Positions 1 to 7,131 of a stretch of 7,131 nt of DNA are shown here, in pieces; positions within the stretch are counted from its first letter, which is position 1, and every line of letters begins with the position of its first letter. The notes below the pieces were generated by a model. It had not been told where the DNA came from. It saw only the letters and a program-made list of their open reading frames with translations, and ran no database searches. Position numbers and translations under genes: made by a program. This DNA is from JALXCG01 sp026991065 [NCBI: Gemmatimonadota bacterium] (GTDB lineage: Bacteria; GCA-2686955), in contig JALXCG010000230.1 of NCBI GenBank assembly GCA_026991065.1, positions 1 to 7,131 on the forward strand. The letters are read 5' to 3'.

Positions 1-564
1 GCAAGCCACCCCGCCGCCGCGCCCGCTGCCGTTGTCCGGTGTGGCGTTGGCCTGAATCACGCAGCGCCACACCGTGGGAGCGGCGCCGTCGATCAGGAGC
101 CCCGCTCCACTGGCGGCGTTGCCACCGGTGATCGTGAAACCGTAGATCGCTCCGCGTGCCTGTGTGGTGTCCACCGTGGCGAAACGCACCACCGGTGAGC
201 TGCTGCCGGCGCCGTCGATGATGGTCGTGGCGACCACCTCGTCATTCCCCGGATCGACCGACGTGAGCAGCAGATCCTTGCCCCGGAAATCGATCGGGCC
301 GGCGTAATTGCCGGGCTCCACAACCACTCGCCCGCCCCGCCCGGGGGCAGCGTCGATCGCCGCCTGGATCTCGGCGTAGTCCTGTGGAACCCTGATCGGC
401 GGCGCTTCTCCAGCCAGCGCGGTCCCGATTCGGAACGCGCCGATGCCCAGGACGCCCATGGCGGTGGCGATGATCGCCCACATCCAGGCTCGCACCGGCG
501 CCGATTCGCCCGGTCGCGCGTTCCGGTCGGCTGCGGCTGTCGTGCGTCTTGAGGAAGAGTTCAT
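1..564 (-). CDS. Secreted right-handed parallel beta-helix protein (N-terminal part)
   Basis: The frame is open from an ATG at 564 to the left edge, giving 188 codons with the C-terminus missing. A GGAG lies 8 nt before the ATG (573-576). Residues 1-26 are polar and basic. Residues 27-50 are hydrophobic and end in Ala-Leu-Ala at 49-51, which looks like a long signal peptide cleaved near 51/52; an uncleaved anchor is possible. The mature part opens with a VPQDYAEIQAAIDAA block (59-73), then VVVEPGNYAGPI and an IDG turn (116-118), then strands with GFTITGGNAASGAG (142-155) and the start of a glycine-rich turn (179-186). This is the usual opening of pectin-lyase-fold parallel beta-helix proteins exported by many uncultivated bacteria. 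Such proteins often bind or cleave polysaccharide, or are only surface proteins, so no substrate is claimed. It lies 18 bp downstream of the GNAT-like gene and is probably cotranscribed with it. Confidence 0.85.
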   Translation of the reverse strand, partial: MNSSSRRTTAAADRNARPGESAPVRAWMWAIIATAMGVLGIGAFRIGTALAGEAPPIRVPQDYAEIQAAIDAAPGRGGRVVVEPGNYAGPIDFRGKDLLLTSVDPGNDEVVATTIIDGAGSSSPVVRFATVDTTQARGAIYGFTITGGNAASGAGLLIDGAAPTVWRCVIQANATPDNGSGRGGGVAC

Positions 565-582
565 CTCACTCGCTCCGGATGA

Positions 583-1695
583 TTACTGAGTGTCATGGAA
601 AGCTTCGGTGACATACCAATGGGTGGGTTCTTCAACGAGGCGGCGCTTTACCTTCTTCGGATCGAAGACCCAAAAAACCACCGGTTGCTCGTTCCCCTCC
701 CAATAGAAGCCGGCCCGCAGCAACGCCTGGAAGTGGTCCGGCGGGGCGGCCAGGCGTACCTCCAGCCATTCCGCCCGGTTGCGTCCCGCCCACTGCACAA
801 TCCCCTCCGCCAGTGCGCGCAGATCCTCCGCGTCGGTGGAGCCGAAAAGATCCACAATCATCCACGTGCCATCCCCGGGATCGGGCCGACGGATCACCGC
901 ATAACGCAAGATTTCGTCTCCGGTCGCCGATTCCAGTGCCAGGATCGTATAGGAGCGCCCCGGAACCCCCGGGCCGAAACGCCACCGCAGCCACGCCAGC
1001 GTACGCTCCTCGACACCCGTATAAGCACCGCGATAGCGCTCCCAGAGTGGCTCGAACCGCCGGTCGAACTCCGGCACGACGCGGACCCGCGCCCCGCGCG
1101 GATGGCGCCAGCCTGCCCGCCACCGCATCATCCGCCAGAACCCGCGCCGGGCCGCTGAGGCCAGGTTGGCGCGCAGAATCTTCATCGACGTGAGATTGCG
1201 GTAGCCGAGCAGCCGCTTTCCCACCACGTAGGCCGCGGGATTGGGGGCGCCTATCCCCCATGAAGTTCCCTCCATCCGCGCCCAGGTCTCTTGGTGTTTG
1301 AAGAGCTTCATCTGCAGTCGCCCACCGCGATACGGCTCGGCGACCATGTTGTCGACCGGAACACCGGTCCAGACGATCGAGCGCCCGATCTGGAACCTTC
1401 GGATGAGGCTGCCGTAGTGACCTACGATCTCCCCGTTTGCATCCGTCGCCACGCTGGCTCCGCGGAGACCAAGGTGCTCACCATTGAATTTCCAGTTCCA
1501 CTCTGCTTCCCACAGGTCGACCGAAACCGGGCGCGACTCGGCGAAGACCTTCGCCGCCAGCTTCGCGATCCCGCGGCTGTCTTCGGGCAGGCAGGGCCGA
1601 ATCAGCAGCCCTTCATAGGACCACCGCAGCGATGGGTCCAGTGTAAACTGAAGAGGATTTTGCACACGCGCCTCCAGTCCACCTCCATGGCCCAC
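583..1695 (-). CDS. GNAT-fold acyltransferase-like protein
   Basis: This 370-residue cytoplasmic protein has no signal peptide. Residues 30-170 read as a GNAT N-acetyltransferase domain: an LIRPCLPED start (31-39), a tryptophan-rich WEAEWNWKF stretch (62-70), an EIVGHYG beta-strand (89-95), and an acyl-CoA-loop region VDNMVAEPYRGGRLQMKLF (114-132). The second half (about 200-345) has an alternating alpha/beta pattern that could be a second GNAT-like half, as in tandem GNAT or FemAB-type proteins. GNAT enzymes move an acyl group from acyl-CoA to an amine; the acceptor here is unknown. The canonical R/Q-x-x-G-x-G/A loop is altered to RGGRLQ. The start is uncertain: GTG at 1695 is the first start codon after the upstream stop and has little ribosome-binding sequence, while GTG at 1665 has GGAGG only 3 nt away. 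It is the first gene of a minus-strand pair with the beta-helix gene. Confidence 0.8.
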   Translation of the reverse strand: MGHGGGLEARVQNPLQFTLDPSLRWSYEGLLIRPCLPEDSRGIAKLAAKVFAESRPVSVDLWEAEWNWKFNGEHLGLRGASVATDANGEIVGHYGSLIRRFQIGRSIVWTGVPVDNMVAEPYRGGRLQMKLFKHQETWARMEGTSWGIGAPNPAAYVVGKRLLGYRNLTSMKILRANLASAARRGFWRMMRWRAGWRHPRGARVRVVPEFDRRFEPLWERYRGAYTGVEERTLAWLRWRFGPGVPGRSYTILALESATGDEILRYAVIRRPDPGDGTWMIVDLFGSTDAEDLRALAEGIVQWAGRNRAEWLEVRLAAPPDHFQALLRAGFYWEGNEQPVVFWVFDPKKVKRRLVEEPTHWYVTEAFHDTQ

Positions 1696-1722
1696 CTCAA
1701 AGCGGCAATGGAGTACGGACTC

Positions 1723-1731
1723 TGATATGAT
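1723..1731 (+). promoter_or_regulatory. Candidate extended -10 promoter for the cyclophilin gene
   Basis: TGATATGAT matches the extended -10 pattern TGnTATAAT with one change. The sequence at the -35 distance (CGGCAA, 1703-1708) is poor, as is common with extended -10 promoters. Transcription would start near 1738 and give a leader of about 110 nt before the ATG at 1849. This call rests on the motif alone. Confidence 0.35.
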
Positions 1732-1834
1732 CCGCCAACGCGGAGATTCCTGTAGCAGAACCCACTGAAGAAGCCCTCATCATACCCGGGATTGAATTCC
1801 TGCACACCATACCCGGCCGGATTCCGCCGGGGCC

Positions 1835-1839
1835 GGAGA
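1835..1839 (+). promoter_or_regulatory. Ribosome-binding site that sets the cyclophilin start
   Basis: GGAGA sits 9 nt before the ATG at 1849. The reading frame is open to an earlier ATG at 1792, but only the 1849 start has this site and puts a clean signal peptide at the N-terminus. Confidence 0.7.
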
Positions 1840-1848
1840 AAACGATTC

Positions 1849-2478
1849 ATGTTTCGCAAGACTCTTTTTGGCGCCAGCCTGCTTCTCTTTTCCTCGCTCG
1901 CCTTTGGTGCCGGTGCCGGAAATGCTGACCATGGCACCGAAGCCTGGCGGCAGAACCCTGGTCTCTACGCTGTCTTTAACACCACGCAGGGCCGCATCGT
2001 CTGCCAGCTTTTTCCCAAGAAGGCCCCCAAAACGGTCGAGAATTTCGTCGGTCTCGCCGAGGGTACCAAAGAGTGGACCCACCCCGGCACCCACAAGAAG
2101 ATGACCGGTACTCGCTTCTACGACGGCCTCATTTTCCACCGCGTGATTCCCGGTTTCATGATCCAGGGGGGGGATCCTCTGGGCAAGGGATTCGGCGGTC
2201 CCGGCTATCAATTCGAGGATGAGTTCGATCCCACCCTGCACTTCGACCGCGCCGGGCGCCTGGCGATGGCGAACGCTGGTCCCGGCACCAACGGAAGCCA
2301 ATTTTTTATTACCGAAGGCCCCACACCCCATCTCGACAATCGCCACACGATTTTCGGGCAAGTTGTTGATGGTCAAGATGTTGTGACCAAGATCGCCAAT
2401 GTTCCCCGCAACTCCCGCGACCTGCCCAACACTCCGGTCGTTATCGAAAAGCTCGAAATTGTCCGCGTAGAGAAGTAG
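1849..2478 (+). CDS. Exported cyclophilin-type peptidyl-prolyl cis-trans isomerase
   Basis: This 209-residue protein speeds cis-trans isomerisation of X-Pro bonds and so helps exported proteins fold. Residues 1-24 are a signal peptide: a basic FRK start, a hydrophobic core LLLFSSLAF, and small residues AGAG before the mature part, which implies periplasmic or secreted location. The cyclophilin domain fills residues 38-207. Family motifs are [14 protein letters not shown] (96-109), which carries catalytic Arg98 and pocket residues Phe103, Met104 and Gln106; [12 protein letters not shown] (144-155); and LDNRHTIFG (162-170). His161 stands where human cyclophilin A has Trp121, a change typical of bacterial members that bind cyclosporin weakly. 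The fuller form of the [10 protein letters not shown] block is closer to the eukaryote-like bacterial cyclophilins than to E. coli PpiA. It is a single-gene unit, with a promoter candidate upstream and a terminator downstream. Confidence 0.95.
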
Positions 2479-2550
2479 ACTTCCACTATCTTCTTGCGCA
2501 CAACGCAGCCCTGATGCGCGCCGCCCACCCCCCTCCCGGGCGAGCGCGCC

Positions 2551-2595
2551 GCACCGGCCGACCCGTCCCCTTCCCGGCGTCGGTCGGTGCCTTTT
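2551..2595 (+). terminator. Rho-independent terminator after the cyclophilin gene
   Basis: A 12 bp stem pairs GCACCGGCCGAC (2551-2562) with GTCGGTCGGTGC (2579-2590), with one G-U pair. The loop is 16 nt, and TTTT follows at 2592-2595. The T run is on the plus-strand side only, so it serves the cyclophilin gene about 70 bp upstream. The T run is short, but the stem is strong. Confidence 0.7.
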
Positions 2596-2659
2596 AACGG
2601 CCATCCGGGAGTGATCGCTCTCCGATCCGATTCAGGGCCGATCGTCGCCGCGGTTTCCG

Positions 2660-3061
2660 CTATTCCGAGGCCGCCGCATCGTTCTCGCTCCCGGCAGCCT
2701 TTGCCCGCTCTTTGGCGATGGTCGCGTGGACCTCTTTCATGTCCACGGCTTTCACCTTTTGCAGAATGTCCACCAGCGCTTCCTCCGGGAAAGCGCCCGA
2801 CTCGCGGAAGAGCAGTACTTTTTCACGGAAGATTGCGGTGGTGGGAATTGAGCGAATTTCAAAGGCGGCGGCTACCTGCTGCTGCTCTTCGGTGTTGCAT
2901 TTGGCAAAGGTGATGTCGGTGAAGCGGTCGCTCAGCTTTTCGAAAATCGGGCCATAAGCCCTGCACGGGGCGCACCATTCGGCCCAGAAGTCGATGACCA
3001 GAATGTCGTTGTCGGCAATGAGACGGTCCAGGTTTTCTGCGGTAACATGTTGAACGGGCAT
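2660..3061 (-). CDS. Thioredoxin with WCAPC active site
   Basis: This 133-residue protein has a complete thioredoxin fold: buried Asp24 in the VIDFWAEWCAPC strand-helix junction, the redox pair Cys30 and Cys33, and the cis-proline Pro73 in SIPTT. It reduces disulfides in cytoplasmic proteins and would be recycled by a thioredoxin reductase not in this window. There is no signal peptide. The active site is WCAPC rather than the E. coli WCGPC. A third cysteine, Cys55, lies in the strand before the cis-Pro loop. The thioredoxin core ends near residue 107; the remaining 25 or so residues are a charged, alanine-rich tail (ending ENDAAASE) longer than in the standard 105-110 residue protein. The start at 3061 is set by AGGAG 7 nt upstream; the open frame running back to 3490 has no thioredoxin-like sequence. 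The gene converges with the cyclophilin gene. Confidence 0.94.
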   Translation of the reverse strand: MPVQHVTAENLDRLIADNDILVIDFWAEWCAPCRAYGPIFEKLSDRFTDITFAKCNTEEQQQVAAAFEIRSIPTTAIFREKVLLFRESGAFPEEALVDILQKVKAVDMKEVHATIAKERAKAAGSENDAAASE

Positions 3062-3068
3062 GAATTGG

Positions 3069-3073
3069 CTCCT
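3069..3073 (-). promoter_or_regulatory. Ribosome-binding site that sets the thioredoxin start
   Basis: AGGAG on the minus strand lies 7 nt before the ATG at 3061. It excludes the long upstream extension of the same frame. Confidence 0.75.
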
Positions 3074-3121
3074 GTATTGTGGTCCCGGGGCACAACCGCC
3101 GGGGGAGTAAGGTAAAGATCC

Positions 3122-3127
3122 ACTATA
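3122..3127 (-). promoter_or_regulatory. Weak -10 candidate for the thioredoxin gene
   Basis: TATAGT on the minus strand differs from TATAAT at one base and lies about 60 bp before the thioredoxin ATG. The -35 position (TGCCCC) does not match the consensus, so this is only a candidate. Confidence 0.25.
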
Positions 3128-3245
3128 GGCTGTGAATCTGGAGGGGGCACTGAAAATGGTGGGCTGGGGCGGGCCGGCCACGCCCGACCTTCCCTCGTTG
3201 CTGCGCGAGTCAACTACCGCTGCCTGACCGCTGGCGTGTACCCCC

Positions 3246-3366
3246 AGTGTGATCGGCACTACCCGAACCCTCTGTCGGGGGTTGTGGGCCGACCACGGGT
3301 GGTCAGTGTGTGGCACCGGCGGACAGGGGCGCCCTCGGCGGCCGGACCGCCGCGAGCCGGGCTCGC
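3246..3366. repeat. Cluster of perfect inverted repeats
   Basis: Five dyads lie close together: AGTG/CACT (3246-3249 with 3257-3260), CCCGA/TCGGG (3262-3266 with 3275-3279), GACCAC/GTGGTC (3291-3296 with 3299-3304), CGGCGG/CCGCCG (3336-3341 with 3347-3352) and GCGAGCC/GGCTCGC (3352-3358 with 3360-3366). None is followed by a T run on either strand, so they are not simple terminators. They could be operators, a structured leader RNA, or a REP-like element. High GC content makes some short dyads likely by chance. Confidence 0.45.
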
Positions 3367-3480
3367 TCTGCATCGATCGCGGCCGTGCCGATCTTGAAGA
3401 GAGCGTCCATATCCAATAGCCCCGATCAACTGCTATGCTATTACAATCGAGAGCCCGGTCGCCTCGCTGCACCAATCTGA

Positions 3481-3579
3481 ATACGAACAAGAAGGAACTC
3501 CGATTGGCATCTGAAAGTCGCCCAGTGGCACATCGAACAGGCCGGCCTGGTCAAGGTCACCAAACCGGAAGGCCGGTAG
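3481..3579 (+). pseudogene. Possible gene relic (coding-like peptide, no start)
   Basis: The frame between stops at 3478 and 3577 reads WHLKVAQWHIEQAGLVKV (3505-3558) followed by TKPEGR and a stop. The amphipathic helix plus AGLVKV strand resembles part of a winged-helix segment, like those at the N-terminus of Mrr-type restriction proteins. It has no ATG, GTG or TTG start and no continuation in neighbouring frames that I can recognise. It may be the remains of a lost gene or a coincidence. Confidence 0.2.
3542..3576. repeat. GC-rich hairpin
   Basis: CCGGCCT (3542-3548) pairs with AGGCCGG (3570-3576), and an alternative inner pair TGGT/ACCA lies at 3548-3551 and 3559-3562. There is no T run after it, so it is not called a terminator. 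It overlaps the coding-like stretch. Confidence 0.35.
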
Positions 3580-3723: not shown

Positions 3724-6309
3724 TTGCCGACCCTTCAGCGGCTCCGTAGAGTCTGCGTCTCGTTGTGCGACAGAGCCCATCGGCCCGGGGCTCTTCATGG
3801 TGCGGCGTTGGCATTGCTACTGGTCGCGCCGAGCGCCCGGACCGAGCCCAGCACGGATGTGGACCTGAGTGAAGTCGTCCCCGCTCAACTCCCCTATCGT
3901 CTCGAGCCGGCGATGGATCATGAACTCGGCGTGGATCCGGCCGAGACCTTCAGGTTCTTCCTGCATGACCTCGATGGTGACGGCCAAGACGAAATCGTGC
4001 ATTGGGATCCCGGGAGGTTTGTTTGCTCCGACTTTGAGAGTGAAACCCTGGCGACGCGATGGCAATACAATCTTCCACCGGGCTACGCTCTGCACCGGGA
4101 ACGTTTTGATCTGGGCGCGGCGGTGGACGTCGACGGGGATGGCCTGCCGGAAGTGCTGCTCGCCGCTGGGTTGGAAGATGGAAGTGACTGGCGGCTCTTT
4201 GTTCTCAAGCCACAAGCGACCGGCGTCGACACCCTGCGCACCTGGCCCCTTCCCGTGGGACCGGACCGTTCGCAGGATGGTGTTTGGGACGGCAACTACC
4301 GCATCATCGGTGTTAGCAACGATCTTTTGTCCGCAGACCGCCCCGCGCTCATTCTGGGTTGTCGAGTTCTCTACGATGCGGTGGGGCGATGCGCCCTGGC
4401 CATCGATCCCGCGACCGGTGAGATATTGTGGCGTTTCCAGTGCGGACCCAACGTGCATCCCACCGGATCGACCTTGGCCGACCTGGATGGCGATGGGGAG
4501 CAAGAAATTGTCCTGGGAACAGGCTCGCCCGACAACTACGAGGAAGACCGCCGCTTTGATCCCAGCGACGATGTTGTCGTTCTCTTCGCGCTCAACCTTC
4601 ACGGTCGGTTGCTCTGGCAGCGCACTCTGGCGGGCAAGTTTCACGGTCTTTTCGTTCGCGCGCACGACCTGGACGGCATCAAAGGCGATGAGTTGGTTGT
4701 TGGTACGCAAAACAGTCAGCCCGGAGAGTCCGACTATCTCCTCGTCTACTCCGGGGAGGGAAGAAGGTTGGCCGCCAAACCCCTGCCCTCTGGTGGCTGT
4801 GAACGCCTTGTGGTGCTGGAGACGGAGAACCCCGCCCGGACCACCATTGTCGTCGGTCTCAGAGACAATGGCGTGCACCGTTACCAATACTTGGCGGATG
4901 AACGAGCGATTCGAATGGCGGGGCGCGCACGCGCCGCTGAGCCTCTGCTTCTGCTGGACGCCGTGAGTTTGTTTCCGGAGCAGAAATCGGCCCAAGTCGC
5001 TGTCTACTTGGCGGGAAGGAATCCCGCGAGGGTCTTTATGCTGAGCGAAAGATTACAGCCTTTGGCGGCCTACACGGCCCCAGCGGGCGATTGTCGCTCC
5101 GCTGCCGGTCCGCCGGCCGTGATGCATCTGAGTGATCAGAAGGAACGTCTTATCTGGCCCAGAAACGGGGGCGGATTGTTTCTTGATTGGACGCGAGTTC
5201 GGTGGTGGGACCGCGCTTGGGGCGTGCTGAGCGGCCCACTCCCGTCACCGCAGTGGCAGATTCTTCTACTCCTTTGTATCTCGAGCGCACTTTGGGGCGG
5301 CCGCAAGTGGGGATGGGCAAGAGGCTTTCGCAGGGGCGAGTCACAGGGGCGCTTGCGGGGCCGCAGCGAAGGGCGGGAGATCGCCTTGACCGACGTTCTG
5401 ACCGGTAACTCTGAACCGGCGCCGCCACCAGGAAGAGATCAATTGCTTCGCATCTTCCAGGCGCTCGACCACGTCAAGCACGCCAACGAGCAGAAGACCG
5501 CGACGGTCTTGCGCGGGGATCTGCTGGATGAGCTGCAATACTTCGCCGAGGAGTACGAAGACAGCGGCGGCAATCTACAGACATATATTCGGCCCTTCCT
5601 GCGCCATGATCTGGGCACTCTACAGGATGTTCTCTCGCTGATCCCGCACTGGCCGGACTGGCGCAACGAGCTGCGCCTCTACCTTGACTCTCTGACTCCA
5701 GTCCTGGGTGCTTTGGAGCGCGGCGAACTGCAGGGCCCTGAGTTGCGATCGCAGTTGCCGACTCTGAAGCGGCATATCTTGGGCCTCGCCAGTGTCATCG
5801 ACGAAATCTACACCGCGGTTCGCATTGAACTCAGCACGCACCTGGCAGAGATCGAAGAGATCGTCGATTCCCGCCGCGAAAGCGCCCGCCAGGCGGGAGT
5901 GCGGATCGAATTGGTCCGCGAGCGGGTCGAAGCGGACCTGCTCTGCCTCATCAAACGCGAGGATCTCTGGTATGTCGTCGGCAATCTGCTCGACAATGCG
6001 CAAAAGGCGATCGGAAATGGGCCGGAGGGGCGCATCCGAGTCGAGTTGGATGGGCGGGAGCTGGAACGTGGGGGCCCGCAGCTCGTGGTGAGGGTGTGCG
6101 ACAACGGCCGGGGACTGTCCGAGCAGACCTGGCGGGATGTTCGCGAAGGCCGATTGCCGGGCGGCACAAGCAGCGGCACGGGCCTGCGTACTTCCCTGGC
6201 CTTGCTCGAACCCTGGGGAGCTGCACTGCGGCTCCTGGTGCCGGATTCTCCACAGTGGTCTACGTCTCTGGAGCTTCGCCTGCGTGTAGTGAGGACACCC
6301 GATGCTTGA
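3724..6309 (+). CDS. Sensor histidine kinase with extracytoplasmic FG-GAP propeller
   Basis: This 861-residue membrane protein probably senses an external signal and phosphorylates the regulator encoded downstream. Residues 1-38 form a signal sequence (basic RLRR start, hydrophobic ALALLLVA). Residues 45-490 are a beta-propeller-like region with four Asp-rich FG-GAP/VCBS motifs of the Ca-binding type: DLDGDGQDE (82-90), DVDGDGLPE (135-143), DLDGDGEQE (253-261) and DLDGIKGDE (315-323). A PQQ-like blade, AIDPATGEILW, lies just before the third. A short membrane segment spans about 510-526. The cytoplasmic part has a helical linker, a likely phosphoacceptor His628 in LRHDL, and an HATPase domain with N-box NLLDNA (754-759), G1 box DNGRGL (793-798) and G2 box GTGL (818-821). 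There is no PAS or HAMP domain. The HisKA region is divergent, so His628 is inferred. It starts with TTG. Confidence 0.9.
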   Translation: MPTLQRLRRVCVSLCDRAHRPGALHGAALALLLVAPSARTEPSTDVDLSEVVPAQLPYRLEPAMDHELGVDPAETFRFFLHDLDGDGQDEIVHWDPGRFVCSDFESETLATRWQYNLPPGYALHRERFDLGAAVDVDGDGLPEVLLAAGLEDGSDWRLFVLKPQATGVDTLRTWPLPVGPDRSQDGVWDGNYRIIGVSNDLLSADRPALILGCRVLYDAVGRCALAIDPATGEILWRFQCGPNVHPTGSTLADLDGDGEQEIVLGTGSPDNYEEDRRFDPSDDVVVLFALNLHGRLLWQRTLAGKFHGLFVRAHDLDGIKGDELVVGTQNSQPGESDYLLVYSGEGRRLAAKPLPSGGCERLVVLETENPARTTIVVGLRDNGVHRYQYLADERAIRMAGRARAAEPLLLLDAVSLFPEQKSAQVAVYLAGRNPARVFMLSERLQPLAAYTAPAGDCRSAAGPPAVMHLSDQKERLIWPRNGGGLFLDWTRVRWWDRAWGVLSGPLPSPQWQILLLLCISSALWGGRKWGWARGFRRGESQGRLRGRSEGREIALTDVLTGNSEPAPPPGRDQLLRIFQALDHVKHANEQKTATVLRGDLLDELQYFAEEYEDSGGNLQTYIRPFLRHDLGTLQDVLSLIPHWPDWRNELRLYLDSLTPVLGALERGELQGPELRSQLPTLKRHILGLASVIDEIYTAVRIELSTHLAEIEEIVDSRRESARQAGVRIELVRERVEADLLCLIKREDLWYVVGNLLDNAQKAIGNGPEGRIRVELDGRELERGGPQLVVRVCDNGRGLSEQTWRDVREGRLPGGTSSGTGLRTSLALLEPWGAALRLLVPDSPQWSTSLELRLRVVRTPDA

Positions 6310-6487
6310 GAATCCACGATTCAGCAGAAAAAGTGGCCCAGGGAGGCGAAAAATTCGCGCCCGATTCTCGCCACGAGCGATCAATCGACATCGTTCGATA
6401 TCCATCTACTTCCAAGGGGCAGGCAAAGGCCTGTGTGACACAACGTTGCGCCGGGTATCGGGCGATATCGGAACGGGGCGGAAATGA
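6302..6487 (+). CDS. Possible small basic protein bridging kinase and regulator genes
   Basis: A 61-codon frame starts inside the last codons of the kinase gene (ATG at 6302, kinase stop at 6307-6309). It ends in an ATGA overlap with the regulator start (stop 6485-6487, ATG 6484). GAGGA lies 6 nt before its ATG, inside the kinase gene. Such end-to-end overlaps are typical of translationally coupled operons. Against it, the codons include AGA, AGG, ATA and many CGA, and third positions are much less GC-rich than in the neighbouring genes. The product is Arg/Lys-rich, matches no family I know, and has no membrane segment. It may be a real small protein, a frame that only carries ribosomes through to the regulator, or chance. 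Confidence 0.3.
   Translation: MLENPRFSRKSGPGRRKIRARFSPRAINRHRSISIYFQGAGKGLCDTTLRRVSGDIGTGRK
6310..6483. other. Kinase-regulator gap with short dyads
   Basis: Perfect inverted repeats occur at 6310-6322 (GAATC, 3 nt, GATTC), 6346-6358 (GCGAA, 3 nt, TTCGC) and 6420-6433 (CAGGC, 4 nt, GCCTG). There is no terminator, so the kinase and regulator genes are probably cotranscribed. The dyads may be regulatory or accidental. Confidence 0.35.
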
Positions 6488-7131
6488 AGAAGAGCGCAAT
6501 TCGAGTGCTGATGATCGATGACGACGTCAATTTCTGCGCGCGATGGCGCAAGCGTCTCGAACAGCACTGCGAAGTCCACGTTGCATACTCCGCGGACGCG
6601 GGCATTCAGGCCAGTCTGGAACTGCTACCCGACGTGGTGCTTCTGGATCTGTACCTGAGCCCGGAACGGCGGAATGGCGGCGCGGCCGAGCAGCCCAATG
6701 GCTTTGCAACCCTGGAGCGGATCCACGCCGATCGTCGCGATCTGCCGGTGATCATGCTTACCCGCGATCGTTCGCACGCGCGTTCTCTGGAAGCGGGAAG
6801 GCAGGGGGCCTTCGACTACCTCTGCAAACCGCCTGATCTGGAGGATCTGCTCAAGACCATTCGCTACGCCCATGAACAGGCGCGACTTCGTGAGCAACAG
6901 GCCTACCTGCAGAATGATCTGGATCAACGGCTTGGCGAGATGGTGGCCGGCGCGGAATGCATGCAGGAACTGCTTTGCATGGCCCGCAAGTGCGCACAGG
7001 TGAACCGGCCCGTGCTGATTCAGGGCGAGACCGGCACGGGCAAGGAGATGCTCGCGCGTTACGTCAGGGACCAGAGTCCGCGGCGCGAGGAACGCTTCGC
7101 CGGACAAAACTGTGCAGAGTTGAGCGGAGAT
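6484..7131 (+). CDS. NtrC-type sigma-54-dependent response regulator (N-terminal part)
   Basis: 216 codons are present, and the gene runs off the right edge. Residues 5-125 are a receiver domain with acidic pocket Asp12 and Asp13, phosphoacceptor Asp55 in VVLLDLYL, switch Thr93 and Lys115 in CKPP. A helical linker (about 127-155) leads into the sigma-54 AAA+ domain. Its Walker A GETGTGKE (181-188) is followed by a diverged FxxxNCAEL segment (205-213) that matches FVAVNCAAL in NtrC. The GAFTGA loop, Walker B and DNA-binding domain lie outside the window, so sigma-54 contact is inferred. The loop between Asp55 and the conserved Gly is about 10 residues longer than in CheY or NtrC. The upstream sensor kinase is the obvious partner. 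The start has only a weak GGGGCGG ribosome-binding site and may rely on coupling. Confidence 0.93.
   Translation, partial: MKKSAIRVLMIDDDVNFCARWRKRLEQHCEVHVAYSADAGIQASLELLPDVVLLDLYLSPERRNGGAAEQPNGFATLERIHADRRDLPVIMLTRDRSHARSLEAGRQGAFDYLCKPPDLEDLLKTIRYAHEQARLREQQAYLQNDLDQRLGEMVAGAECMQELLCMARKCAQVNRPVLIQGETGTGKEMLARYVRDQSPRREERFAGQNCAELSGD

What the first reader, a model, noticed from the sequence alone, without database searches (positions are those of the whole stretch)
3724..7131. Two-component system with an FG-GAP/PQQ-like propeller as sensor
The sequence shows four Asp-rich Ca-binding-type motifs and a PQQ-like blade outside the membrane, joined to an HATPase core and followed by an NtrC-type regulator. 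Propeller-sensing kinases of the Reg_prop/Y_Y_Y type are well known, but an integrin-like FG-GAP propeller on a classical kinase is much less described. Ligand sensing, perhaps of polysaccharide, cell-surface protein or calcium, is inference.
Basis: partly seen in the sequence, partly recalled or inferred. Interest (0 to 1): 0.6.

Follow-up and report, generated by a model that had tools for sequence, protein, structure and literature searches.

The report
Propeller-sensing histidine kinase with NtrC-type partner
A bacterial signalling pair in which a propeller-shaped, calcium-motif sensor outside the membrane is wired to a histidine kinase and a gene regulator; it belongs to a recurring, apparently undescribed family, and this copy has an unusual kinase core.

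Summary
The gene at 3724-6309 encodes a signal-like N-terminus, a ~440-residue propeller with three clear and one degenerate DxDxDG loop, one membrane helix and a HATPase domain; an NtrC-type regulator gene, cut by the contig end, follows on the same strand. A 74-row AlphaFold2 model (mean pLDDT 81) gives a propeller whose best VIA-align matches are eight-bladed (BamB, YxaL, ODA16, Tako8), so "integrin-like" is only loosely right. The architecture recurs: full-length relatives in 16 of 386 sampled genomes (own included), in 18 of 20 held genomes of one phylum and 27 of 40 of another, most likely Calditrichota. Of 64 evaluable propeller kinases 46 are followed by an NtrC-type regulator, so not always. 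Nine paper searches found no description. The window's kinase is not classical: no HisKA is detectable. It belongs to a rarer sub-class (class II) with one invariant histidine (window H586 in two of three alignments) about 178 residues before the N-box, some 60 further than in measured HisKA-type relatives. That it is the phosphoacceptor is inference; H628 is a rival. Ligand unknown; a glycan or surface protein is the best guess. Verdict: real, a new variant of a known kind.

The parts
3724..6309 (+). propeller-sensor histidine kinase gene (861 aa, TTG start)
3724..3843 (+). signal-like N-terminus (residues about 1-40: basic stretch, then AALALLLVAPSA)
   Evidence: read from the translation; most relatives have a hydrophobic segment at the same place; no signal-peptide program was run
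3895..5196 (+). extracytoplasmic propeller (residues about 58-491), probably eight-bladed
3967..3993 (+). calcium-type loop 1, DLDGDGQDE (residues 82-90)
4126..4152 (+). calcium-type loop 2, DVDGDGLPE (residues 135-143)
4480..4506 (+). calcium-type loop 3, DLDGDGEQE (residues 253-261)
4666..4692 (+). degenerate fourth loop, DLDGIKGDE (residues 315-323)
   Evidence: fails the strict pattern
4285..4437 (+). most conserved sensor stretch: WDG (188-190), invariant Arg222, PQQ-like motif CALAIDPATGEILWRF (223-238)
5245..5307 (+). membrane helix (residues about 508-528)
   Evidence: helix 464-484 of the model; most relatives have a hydrophobic segment there; weak by hydropathy in the window
5434..5832 (+). 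class II cytoplasmic helical region without detectable HisKA (residues 571-703)
5479..5481 (+). H586: aligns with the His invariant in class II in both 24-row alignments
5470..5472 (+). H583: takes that place in the six-row alignment instead
5605..5607 (+). H628 in RHDLGTL, rival phosphoacceptor candidate
5959..6282 (+). HATPase_c catalytic domain (residues 746-853)
6484..7131 (+). NtrC-type response regulator, 216 aa, truncated by the contig end: receiver and start of the sigma-54 AAA+ domain
6646..6648 (+). predicted phosphoacceptor Asp55 of the receiver (VVLLDLYL)
   Evidence: read from the translation; family knowledge

Best explanation
A membrane two-component system. Outside the cytoplasmic membrane a propeller of the VCBS/FG-GAP-PQQ type, probably eight-bladed and stabilised by calcium in its DxDxDG loops, binds a so far unknown ligand (most likely a polysaccharide or a surface or secreted protein). 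Binding changes the propeller, or its pairing in a dimer, and the change passes through one membrane helix to a cytoplasmic helical transmitter and the HATPase domain. The kinase phosphorylates a histidine and passes the phosphate to Asp55 of the NtrC-type regulator, which then activates sigma-54 promoters. Shown here: the sequence domains, gene order and family conservation, and, by prediction, fold and topology. Inferred: calcium binding, ligand, dimerisation, which histidine is phosphorylated, phosphotransfer and targets.
For: Domains. Model from 74 sequences: mean pLDDT 81.4, pTM 0.62, about 29 strands, then a helix at the membrane position. Sensor fold matches by VIA-align: ODA16 Z 29.9 (rmsd 2.6 over 327), Cake8 Z 29.9 (2.3 over 312), YxaL Z 29.7 (2.4 over 318), E. 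coli BamB Z 29.3 (2.6 over 326), Tako8 Z 28.3 (2.5 over 312). The cytoplasmic part is matched by Foldseek to HK853-type kinases at E about 1e-8. Family: 21 of the 24 other frames scanned have a hydrophobic segment at both ends of the sensor; conserved WDG/PRG/N..D motifs with one invariant Arg. Gene pairing: 46 of 64 evaluable propeller kinases are followed on the same strand by an NtrC-type gene at -211 to +393 nt between open frames. Receiver residues of the window's regulator look intact (read).
Against: No ligand, metal or activity data. The window's membrane helix is weak by hydropathy. HisKA is undetectable, so autophosphorylation by the usual route is not assured. In class II only 8 of 21 evaluable kinases have the regulator next door. 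The window has a 174-nt gap between kinase and regulator, and no sigma-54 site was found in it. The kinase match in Foldseek has TM-scores near 0.5 at best and rmsd near 20, and Foldseek's own list also holds other propellers (BBS1, KICSTOR, DDB1), so the blade number rests on VIA-align. The regulator is incomplete, so its central loop and DNA-binding domain cannot be checked.
Confidence: 0.76

Rival explanations
1. The class II core is a degenerate canonical kinase: the window's RHDLGTL is a diverged H-box, H628 is the phosphoacceptor in a normal helical hairpin, and the upstream invariant His is structural.
For: RHDLGTL resembles HD[IL]KTPL; H628 lies on predicted helix 574-595 of the model, the third-last helix ahead of the catalytic domain; Foldseek matches HK853-type kinases.
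Against: In the 24-row class II alignment only one other member (L176) has His in that column, which borders a gap and so is unsure, whereas the upstream His is 24 of 24. By eye a nearby REIGxP stretch of the relatives could also be matched to RHDLGT; there L177 has His. H628 lies 130 residues before the N-box Asn, against 112-118 in nine measured class I kinases. Profile comparison of the two H regions finds no similarity, though such a negative is weak.
Confidence: 0.35
2. Class II kinases, the window's included, are mainly phosphatases or pseudokinases that use the propeller to tune a regulator phosphorylated by another kinase.
For: No HisKA-type Pfam model among the matches of 24 class II members; tandem pairs of propeller kinases before one regulator in L065 and L173, and a cut pair in L058.
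Against: The ATP-binding boxes are nearly invariant, and one His is invariant 24 of 24, which a pseudokinase need not keep.
Confidence: 0.15
3. The propeller is not a ligand sensor but a scaffold for a partner protein in the envelope, as BamB is in the BAM complex; the kinase then reports envelope assembly stress.
For: BamB is among the closest fold matches.
Against: BamB is one of many matches with tied Z; a shared fold shows no function. The DxDxDG loops and FG-GAP matches point to the VCBS group, which is associated mainly with carbohydrate recognition and also with protein contacts (PMC9218822, passages).
Confidence: 0.2

Closest known systems
Bacteroides hybrid two-component systems (HTCS) with Reg_prop/Y_Y_Y sensors
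   Same: Large extracytoplasmic beta-propeller sensor on a histidine kinase; there shown to bind oligosaccharides (PMC3243724, passages)
   Different: There two predicted seven-bladed Reg_prop propellers plus a YYY domain, with receiver and AraC-type domain in one polypeptide; here one FG-GAP/VCBS propeller, probably eight-bladed, no Reg_prop or YYY match, and a separate NtrC-type regulator
VCBS/FG-GAP propeller superfamily (Pfam PF13517, PF01839), with RGL11 and PQQ propellers
   Same: DxDxDG cation loops, FG-GAP_3 match in 21 of 24 members, weak RGL11 and PQQ matches
   Different: PMC8023676 (passages) lists companion domains such as immunoglobulin-like, armadillo and lectin; the passages I saw name no VCBS propeller on a histidine kinase
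YxaL and BamB (PQQ-like propellers)
   Same: Best bacterial fold matches, Z about 29 over about 320 residues
   Different: 11-15% identity in the rows shown; fold only; that they carry no kinase domain is recalled
AfsK-type Ser/Thr kinases with PQQ propeller
   Same: Propeller-type repeats on a kinase (PMC1262709, passages, on Ser/Thr kinases with PQQ repeats; the link to AfsK and its membrane location are recalled)
   Different: Ser/Thr kinase, not a histidine kinase; no cognate NtrC-type regulator (recalled)
XrtA/PEP-CTERM PrsK-PrsR two-component system
   Same: Best NCBIfam hit of the regulator is PEP_resp_reg, and PrsK is among the kinase's weak hits
   Different: Far below both curated cut-offs (104.1 against 502.6 bits on a truncated protein; 22.5 against 300)

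Membership tests
sensor histidine kinase (two-component system) | HATPase_c catalytic domain with N, G1 and G2 boxes | tested here: met
   (2.3e-8, above cut-off); box residues nearly invariant
sensor histidine kinase (two-component system) | recognisable phosphoacceptor domain (HisKA or relative) | tested here: not met
   no HisKA-type model at E up to 1 in the window and none among the families matched by 24 class II members at E up to 5 (HMMER drops most weak matches); a different invariant His exists
sensor histidine kinase (two-component system) | response regulator encoded next to it | tested here: met
   window; family: 46 of 64 evaluable kinases, window included
sensor histidine kinase (two-component system) | autophosphorylation and phosphotransfer | not testable with these tools
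   needs biochemistry
VCBS/FG-GAP beta-propellers | match to PF13517 or PF01839 above cut-off | tested here: met
   38.7 against 26.9 bits and 30.7 against 22.1
VCBS/FG-GAP beta-propellers | DxDxDG cation loops in several blades | tested here: met
   three strict, one degenerate
VCBS/FG-GAP beta-propellers | propeller fold | tested here: met
   by prediction only:
integrin alpha head (seven-bladed FG-GAP propeller) | seven blades | tested here: inconclusive
Reg_prop/Y_Y_Y HTCS | Reg_prop and Y_Y_Y matches | tested here: not met
   neither appears at E up to 1
PQQ/BamB family (PF13360) | match above cut-off | tested here: not met
   17.1 against 27.6 bits; the predicted fold is similar
NtrC-type sigma-54 regulators | receiver plus sigma-54 AAA+ domain | tested here: met
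   the AAA+ part is partial because the contig ends
NtrC-type sigma-54 regulators | GAFTGA loop and Fis-type DNA-binding domain | not testable with these tools
   beyond the contig end; in the family 41 of 46 neighbouring regulators cover nearly the whole regulator model; GAFTGA was not looked for

The most novel reading that the evidence does not exclude
The window belongs to a separate class of histidine kinases in which the phosphoacceptor has left the usual H-box and sits in a membrane-proximal helical domain (typical motif [AG][GS]HGK, invariant His about 178 residues before the N-box). It would work more like CheA, with the phosphorylated His in its own helical module, but inside a membrane receptor, and read by propeller sensors of two different kinds (FG-GAP, and Reg_prop in G052).
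Probability: 0.3. Interest if true: 0.75.

Novelty: new variant of a known kind. Interest (0 to 1): 0.52.

Why it matters
It turns a single odd gene into a family: a sensor propeller with its own conserved motifs, found in a dozen sampled bacterial families and most held genomes of two phyla, often with its regulator next door, and apparently without a name or a tested member. That makes the ligand question testable on many homologues. The class II core, if the invariant His is the phosphoacceptor, would add a new way of building a histidine kinase.

Tried and rejected
Single-sequence AlphaFold2 of the full kinase: mean pLDDT 36, useless. Single-protein scan of genome contigs: 13 pattern matches, no relative. 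A scan with all 24 sensors was not accepted because no stretch is conserved enough; a scan with five Calditrichota-type sensors gave 291 pattern matches and five named loci. "Integrin-like" as the fold class: weakened by the eight-bladed VIA-align matches. Results that pull the other way: in the profile search of PDB sequences short stretches match integrin alpha-V, ITFG2 and the hemolysin-related 6mlt, and Foldseek lists BBS1, KICSTOR and DDB1 propellers. Membership in the PrsK/PrsR system: rejected on curated cut-offs. Homology of the class II H region with the class I HisKA region: none found by hhalign. HPt domain: not among the Pfam families matched by 24 class II members at E up to 5; since HMMER drops weak matches this does not exclude it. 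Sigma-54 sites: 12 of 76 stretches upstream of sensor frames against 121 of 1700 random stretches; suggestive at most, none in the window. Sigma-70 promoter and terminator scan: no more than chance. Conserved neighbours other than the regulator: the first cluster looks like shadow frames and the others were not examined one by one; only the cluster that held the subtilases was followed. Background for the regulator pairing: of 37 distinct other kinases caught (three duplicate loci removed by me), 12 have a near-complete NtrC-type gene next (my count); that set is biased towards similar kinases, holds five with class II-like H motifs, has flanks of only 1.5 kb, and four of the 37 had under 1 kb left. 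Weaker sensor matches (for example in G004, G039, G090, G099, G107, G277, G365) were not scanned and may be other FG-GAP proteins. Papers: nine searches; FG-GAP with histidine kinase gave three papers, FG-GAP with sensor kinase one of the same three. I read passages of that one (PMC7841849), where the FG-GAP repeats belong to matrix proteins, and saw only the listing of the other two.
Full report
What is there. The window is a whole 7131-bp contig of an assembly of 4.14 Mb in 902 contigs, 84% complete. The kinase gene runs from 3724 (TTG) to 6309 and the regulator from 6484 to the contig end. Pfam finds FG-GAP_3, FG-GAP and HATPase_c above their cut-offs in the kinase, PQQ_2 and RGL11_C below theirs, and no HisKA; in the regulator it finds a receiver and the start of a sigma-54 AAA+ domain. 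Three calcium-type DxDGDG loops fit a strict pattern, a number reached by 17 of 5000 shuffles of the same residues; the fourth is degenerate.

Fold. A single-sequence model failed (mean pLDDT 36). A model from 74 aligned rows (window; 23 class II relatives to their C-terminal end; sensor only for 50 others, alignment A6) has mean pLDDT 81.4 and pTM 0.62, with about 29 strands, then a helix at the expected membrane position, a poorly predicted linker, five helices of 16 residues or more, and the catalytic domain. VIA-align places the sensor with ODA16, the designed proteins Cake8 and Tako8, YxaL and BamB at Z 28-30, rmsd 2.3-2.6 over 312-327 residues. Tako8 is named eight-bladed in that listing and Sqt1, also listed, in PMC8023676 (passage); that BamB, YxaL and ODA16 are eight-bladed is recalled. 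I had no coordinates and did not count blades. Foldseek ranks HK853-type kinases first (E about 1e-8, TM-scores near 0.5 of the target, rmsd near 20) and lists BBS1, KICSTOR and DDB1 propellers for the sensor.

Family. A three-sequence sensor profile hit 27 of 386 genomes sampled across the domain at 1e-6, own genome included. Fetched loci showed full-length propeller kinases. With a 24-sequence profile 23 of 386 genomes match at 1e-12; 16 of these, from 12 families, match at 1e-90 or better, but these 16 (own included) are also the source of the profile. More independent tests are the two phyla searched next: 18 of 20 held genomes in the phylum of G211 and 27 of 40 in the phylum of G345 at 1e-12, three source genomes in each included and fragments counted. 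The latter is most likely Calditrichota: contigs of the same lengths in the named collection are titled Calditrichia and Calditrichota bacterium, though one genome of the group is titled Caldisericaceae. One further named locus is a Bacteroidales MAG. Conserved sensor marks: WD(G), (P)RG with one invariant Arg, an Asn and an Asp in a long loop. FG-GAP_3 is found in 21 of 24 members. Identity is low: the window is 25% identical at best. Of 24 other frames scanned for hydropathy, 21 have a hydrophobic segment at both ends of the sensor; L061 and L071 lack one and one frame is cut.

Gene order. I scanned 79 loci (not every place listed was fetched; mainly fragments were left out). They hold 85 sensor frames, 74 with a HATPase domain. 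Ten of the 74 have no regulator in view and under 1 kb of contig left. Of the other 64, 46 are followed on the same strand by an NtrC-type gene (gaps between stop-to-stop frames -211 to +393 nt, 25 of 46 negative), 41 of these spanning nearly the whole regulator model. One of the 46 (L068) is weak: Pfam sees only the AAA lid there. By class: 38 of 43 in class I, 8 of 21 in class II, the window among them. A further class II case (L057, Pfam matches partly below cut-off) overlaps too far for my cut-off, and two (L065, L173) are first in a tandem pair whose second kinase is followed by the regulator. As a rough control, 12 of 37 other kinases from these searches have such a gene next (my count).

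Two core classes. Most relatives carry a plain H-box such as AHDIKTPL or AHEIKNPL (class I); twelve of the rows that I lump with class I did not fit my H-box pattern and were not checked one by one, though one search shows two of them (L066, L074) with looser H-box-like stretches. The window, the G211 phylum and G195 form class II. There no HisKA-type family is among the Pfam matches of 24 members, and one His is invariant in 24 of 24. It lies 178 residues before the N-box Asn in 18 of the 23 other members and 167-179 in the rest (my count). In the window it is H586 (172 residues) in both 24-row alignments but H583 (175) in the six-row one. In nine measured class I kinases the H-box His is 112-118 before it; for most class I rows my N-box pattern failed. 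On the sensor tree the class label needs 2 changes against 21 in shuffles, but kinship alone would cluster it, and the window's place in the class II group has only SH-aLRT 84. The same His motif occurs in a kinase with Reg_prop sensor in G052 and in kinases of G325 and G194 (sensors of these two not scanned), each followed by an NtrC-type gene. The class II H region alone matches 7 of 386 genomes at 1e-5; two of the seven, G052 and G325 (about 5e-7), were not in the profile, and only the G325 match reaches over the His position. The window also has RHDLGTL (H628), which I cannot exclude as the phosphoacceptor.

Function. In three loci of the G211 phylum a subtilase gene follows the regulator on the same strand, 8, 69 and 130 nt after its frame (L065, L173, L190); a fourth locus with over 1 kb in view after the regulator (L179) did not fall in that cluster. 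A secreted protease may thus be one output there; nothing of this can be seen in the window because the contig ends. VCBS-type propellers are mostly linked to carbohydrate recognition, also to protein contacts (PMC9218822, passages), and propeller HTCS sensors bind oligosaccharides (PMC3243724, passages). By analogy only, a glycan or a surface protein is the best guess for the ligand.

Novelty. Nine paper searches over open-licence PMC papers listed no description of an FG-GAP or VCBS propeller on a histidine kinase; lists were capped, subscription papers and databases of domain architectures were not searchable, so the family may be annotated elsewhere. I rate it a new variant of a known kind.

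Noticed in passing
L065:1311-7685, L173:1456-7763, L058:3-3813: Tandem pairs of propeller kinases before one NtrC-type regulator (L058 cut by its contig); the complete ones are class II.
   Followed up: partly
L065:1-1302, L173:7833-9383, L190:4060-5739: A subtilase gene directly downstream of the regulator on the same strand in three loci of the G211 phylum.
   Followed up: partly
L080, L082, L083 (cytoplasmic parts): Kinases (the first with Reg_prop sensor) that share the class II histidine motif (FGHSG..TRNLDRL) and are followed by NtrC-type genes.
   Followed up: partly
L084, L086, L088: Kinases with a similar H motif in a similar place (FHHSR, FQHSK, WNHGK); L088 also has a diverged FG-GAP-like sensor.
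   Followed up: partly
L021:4109-5938: A Ser/Thr protein kinase frame with a C-terminal secretion-type sorting tail beside the class I propeller kinase of G059.
   Followed up: no
window 1-3490: Neighbours: a DUF1565 protein and a GNAT-type enzyme (- strand), a cyclophilin (+), a thioredoxin (-); none points to the ligand.
   Followed up: no
L231:6001-7242: A diverged member of the sensor family on a contig labelled Bacteroidales MAG.
   Followed up: no
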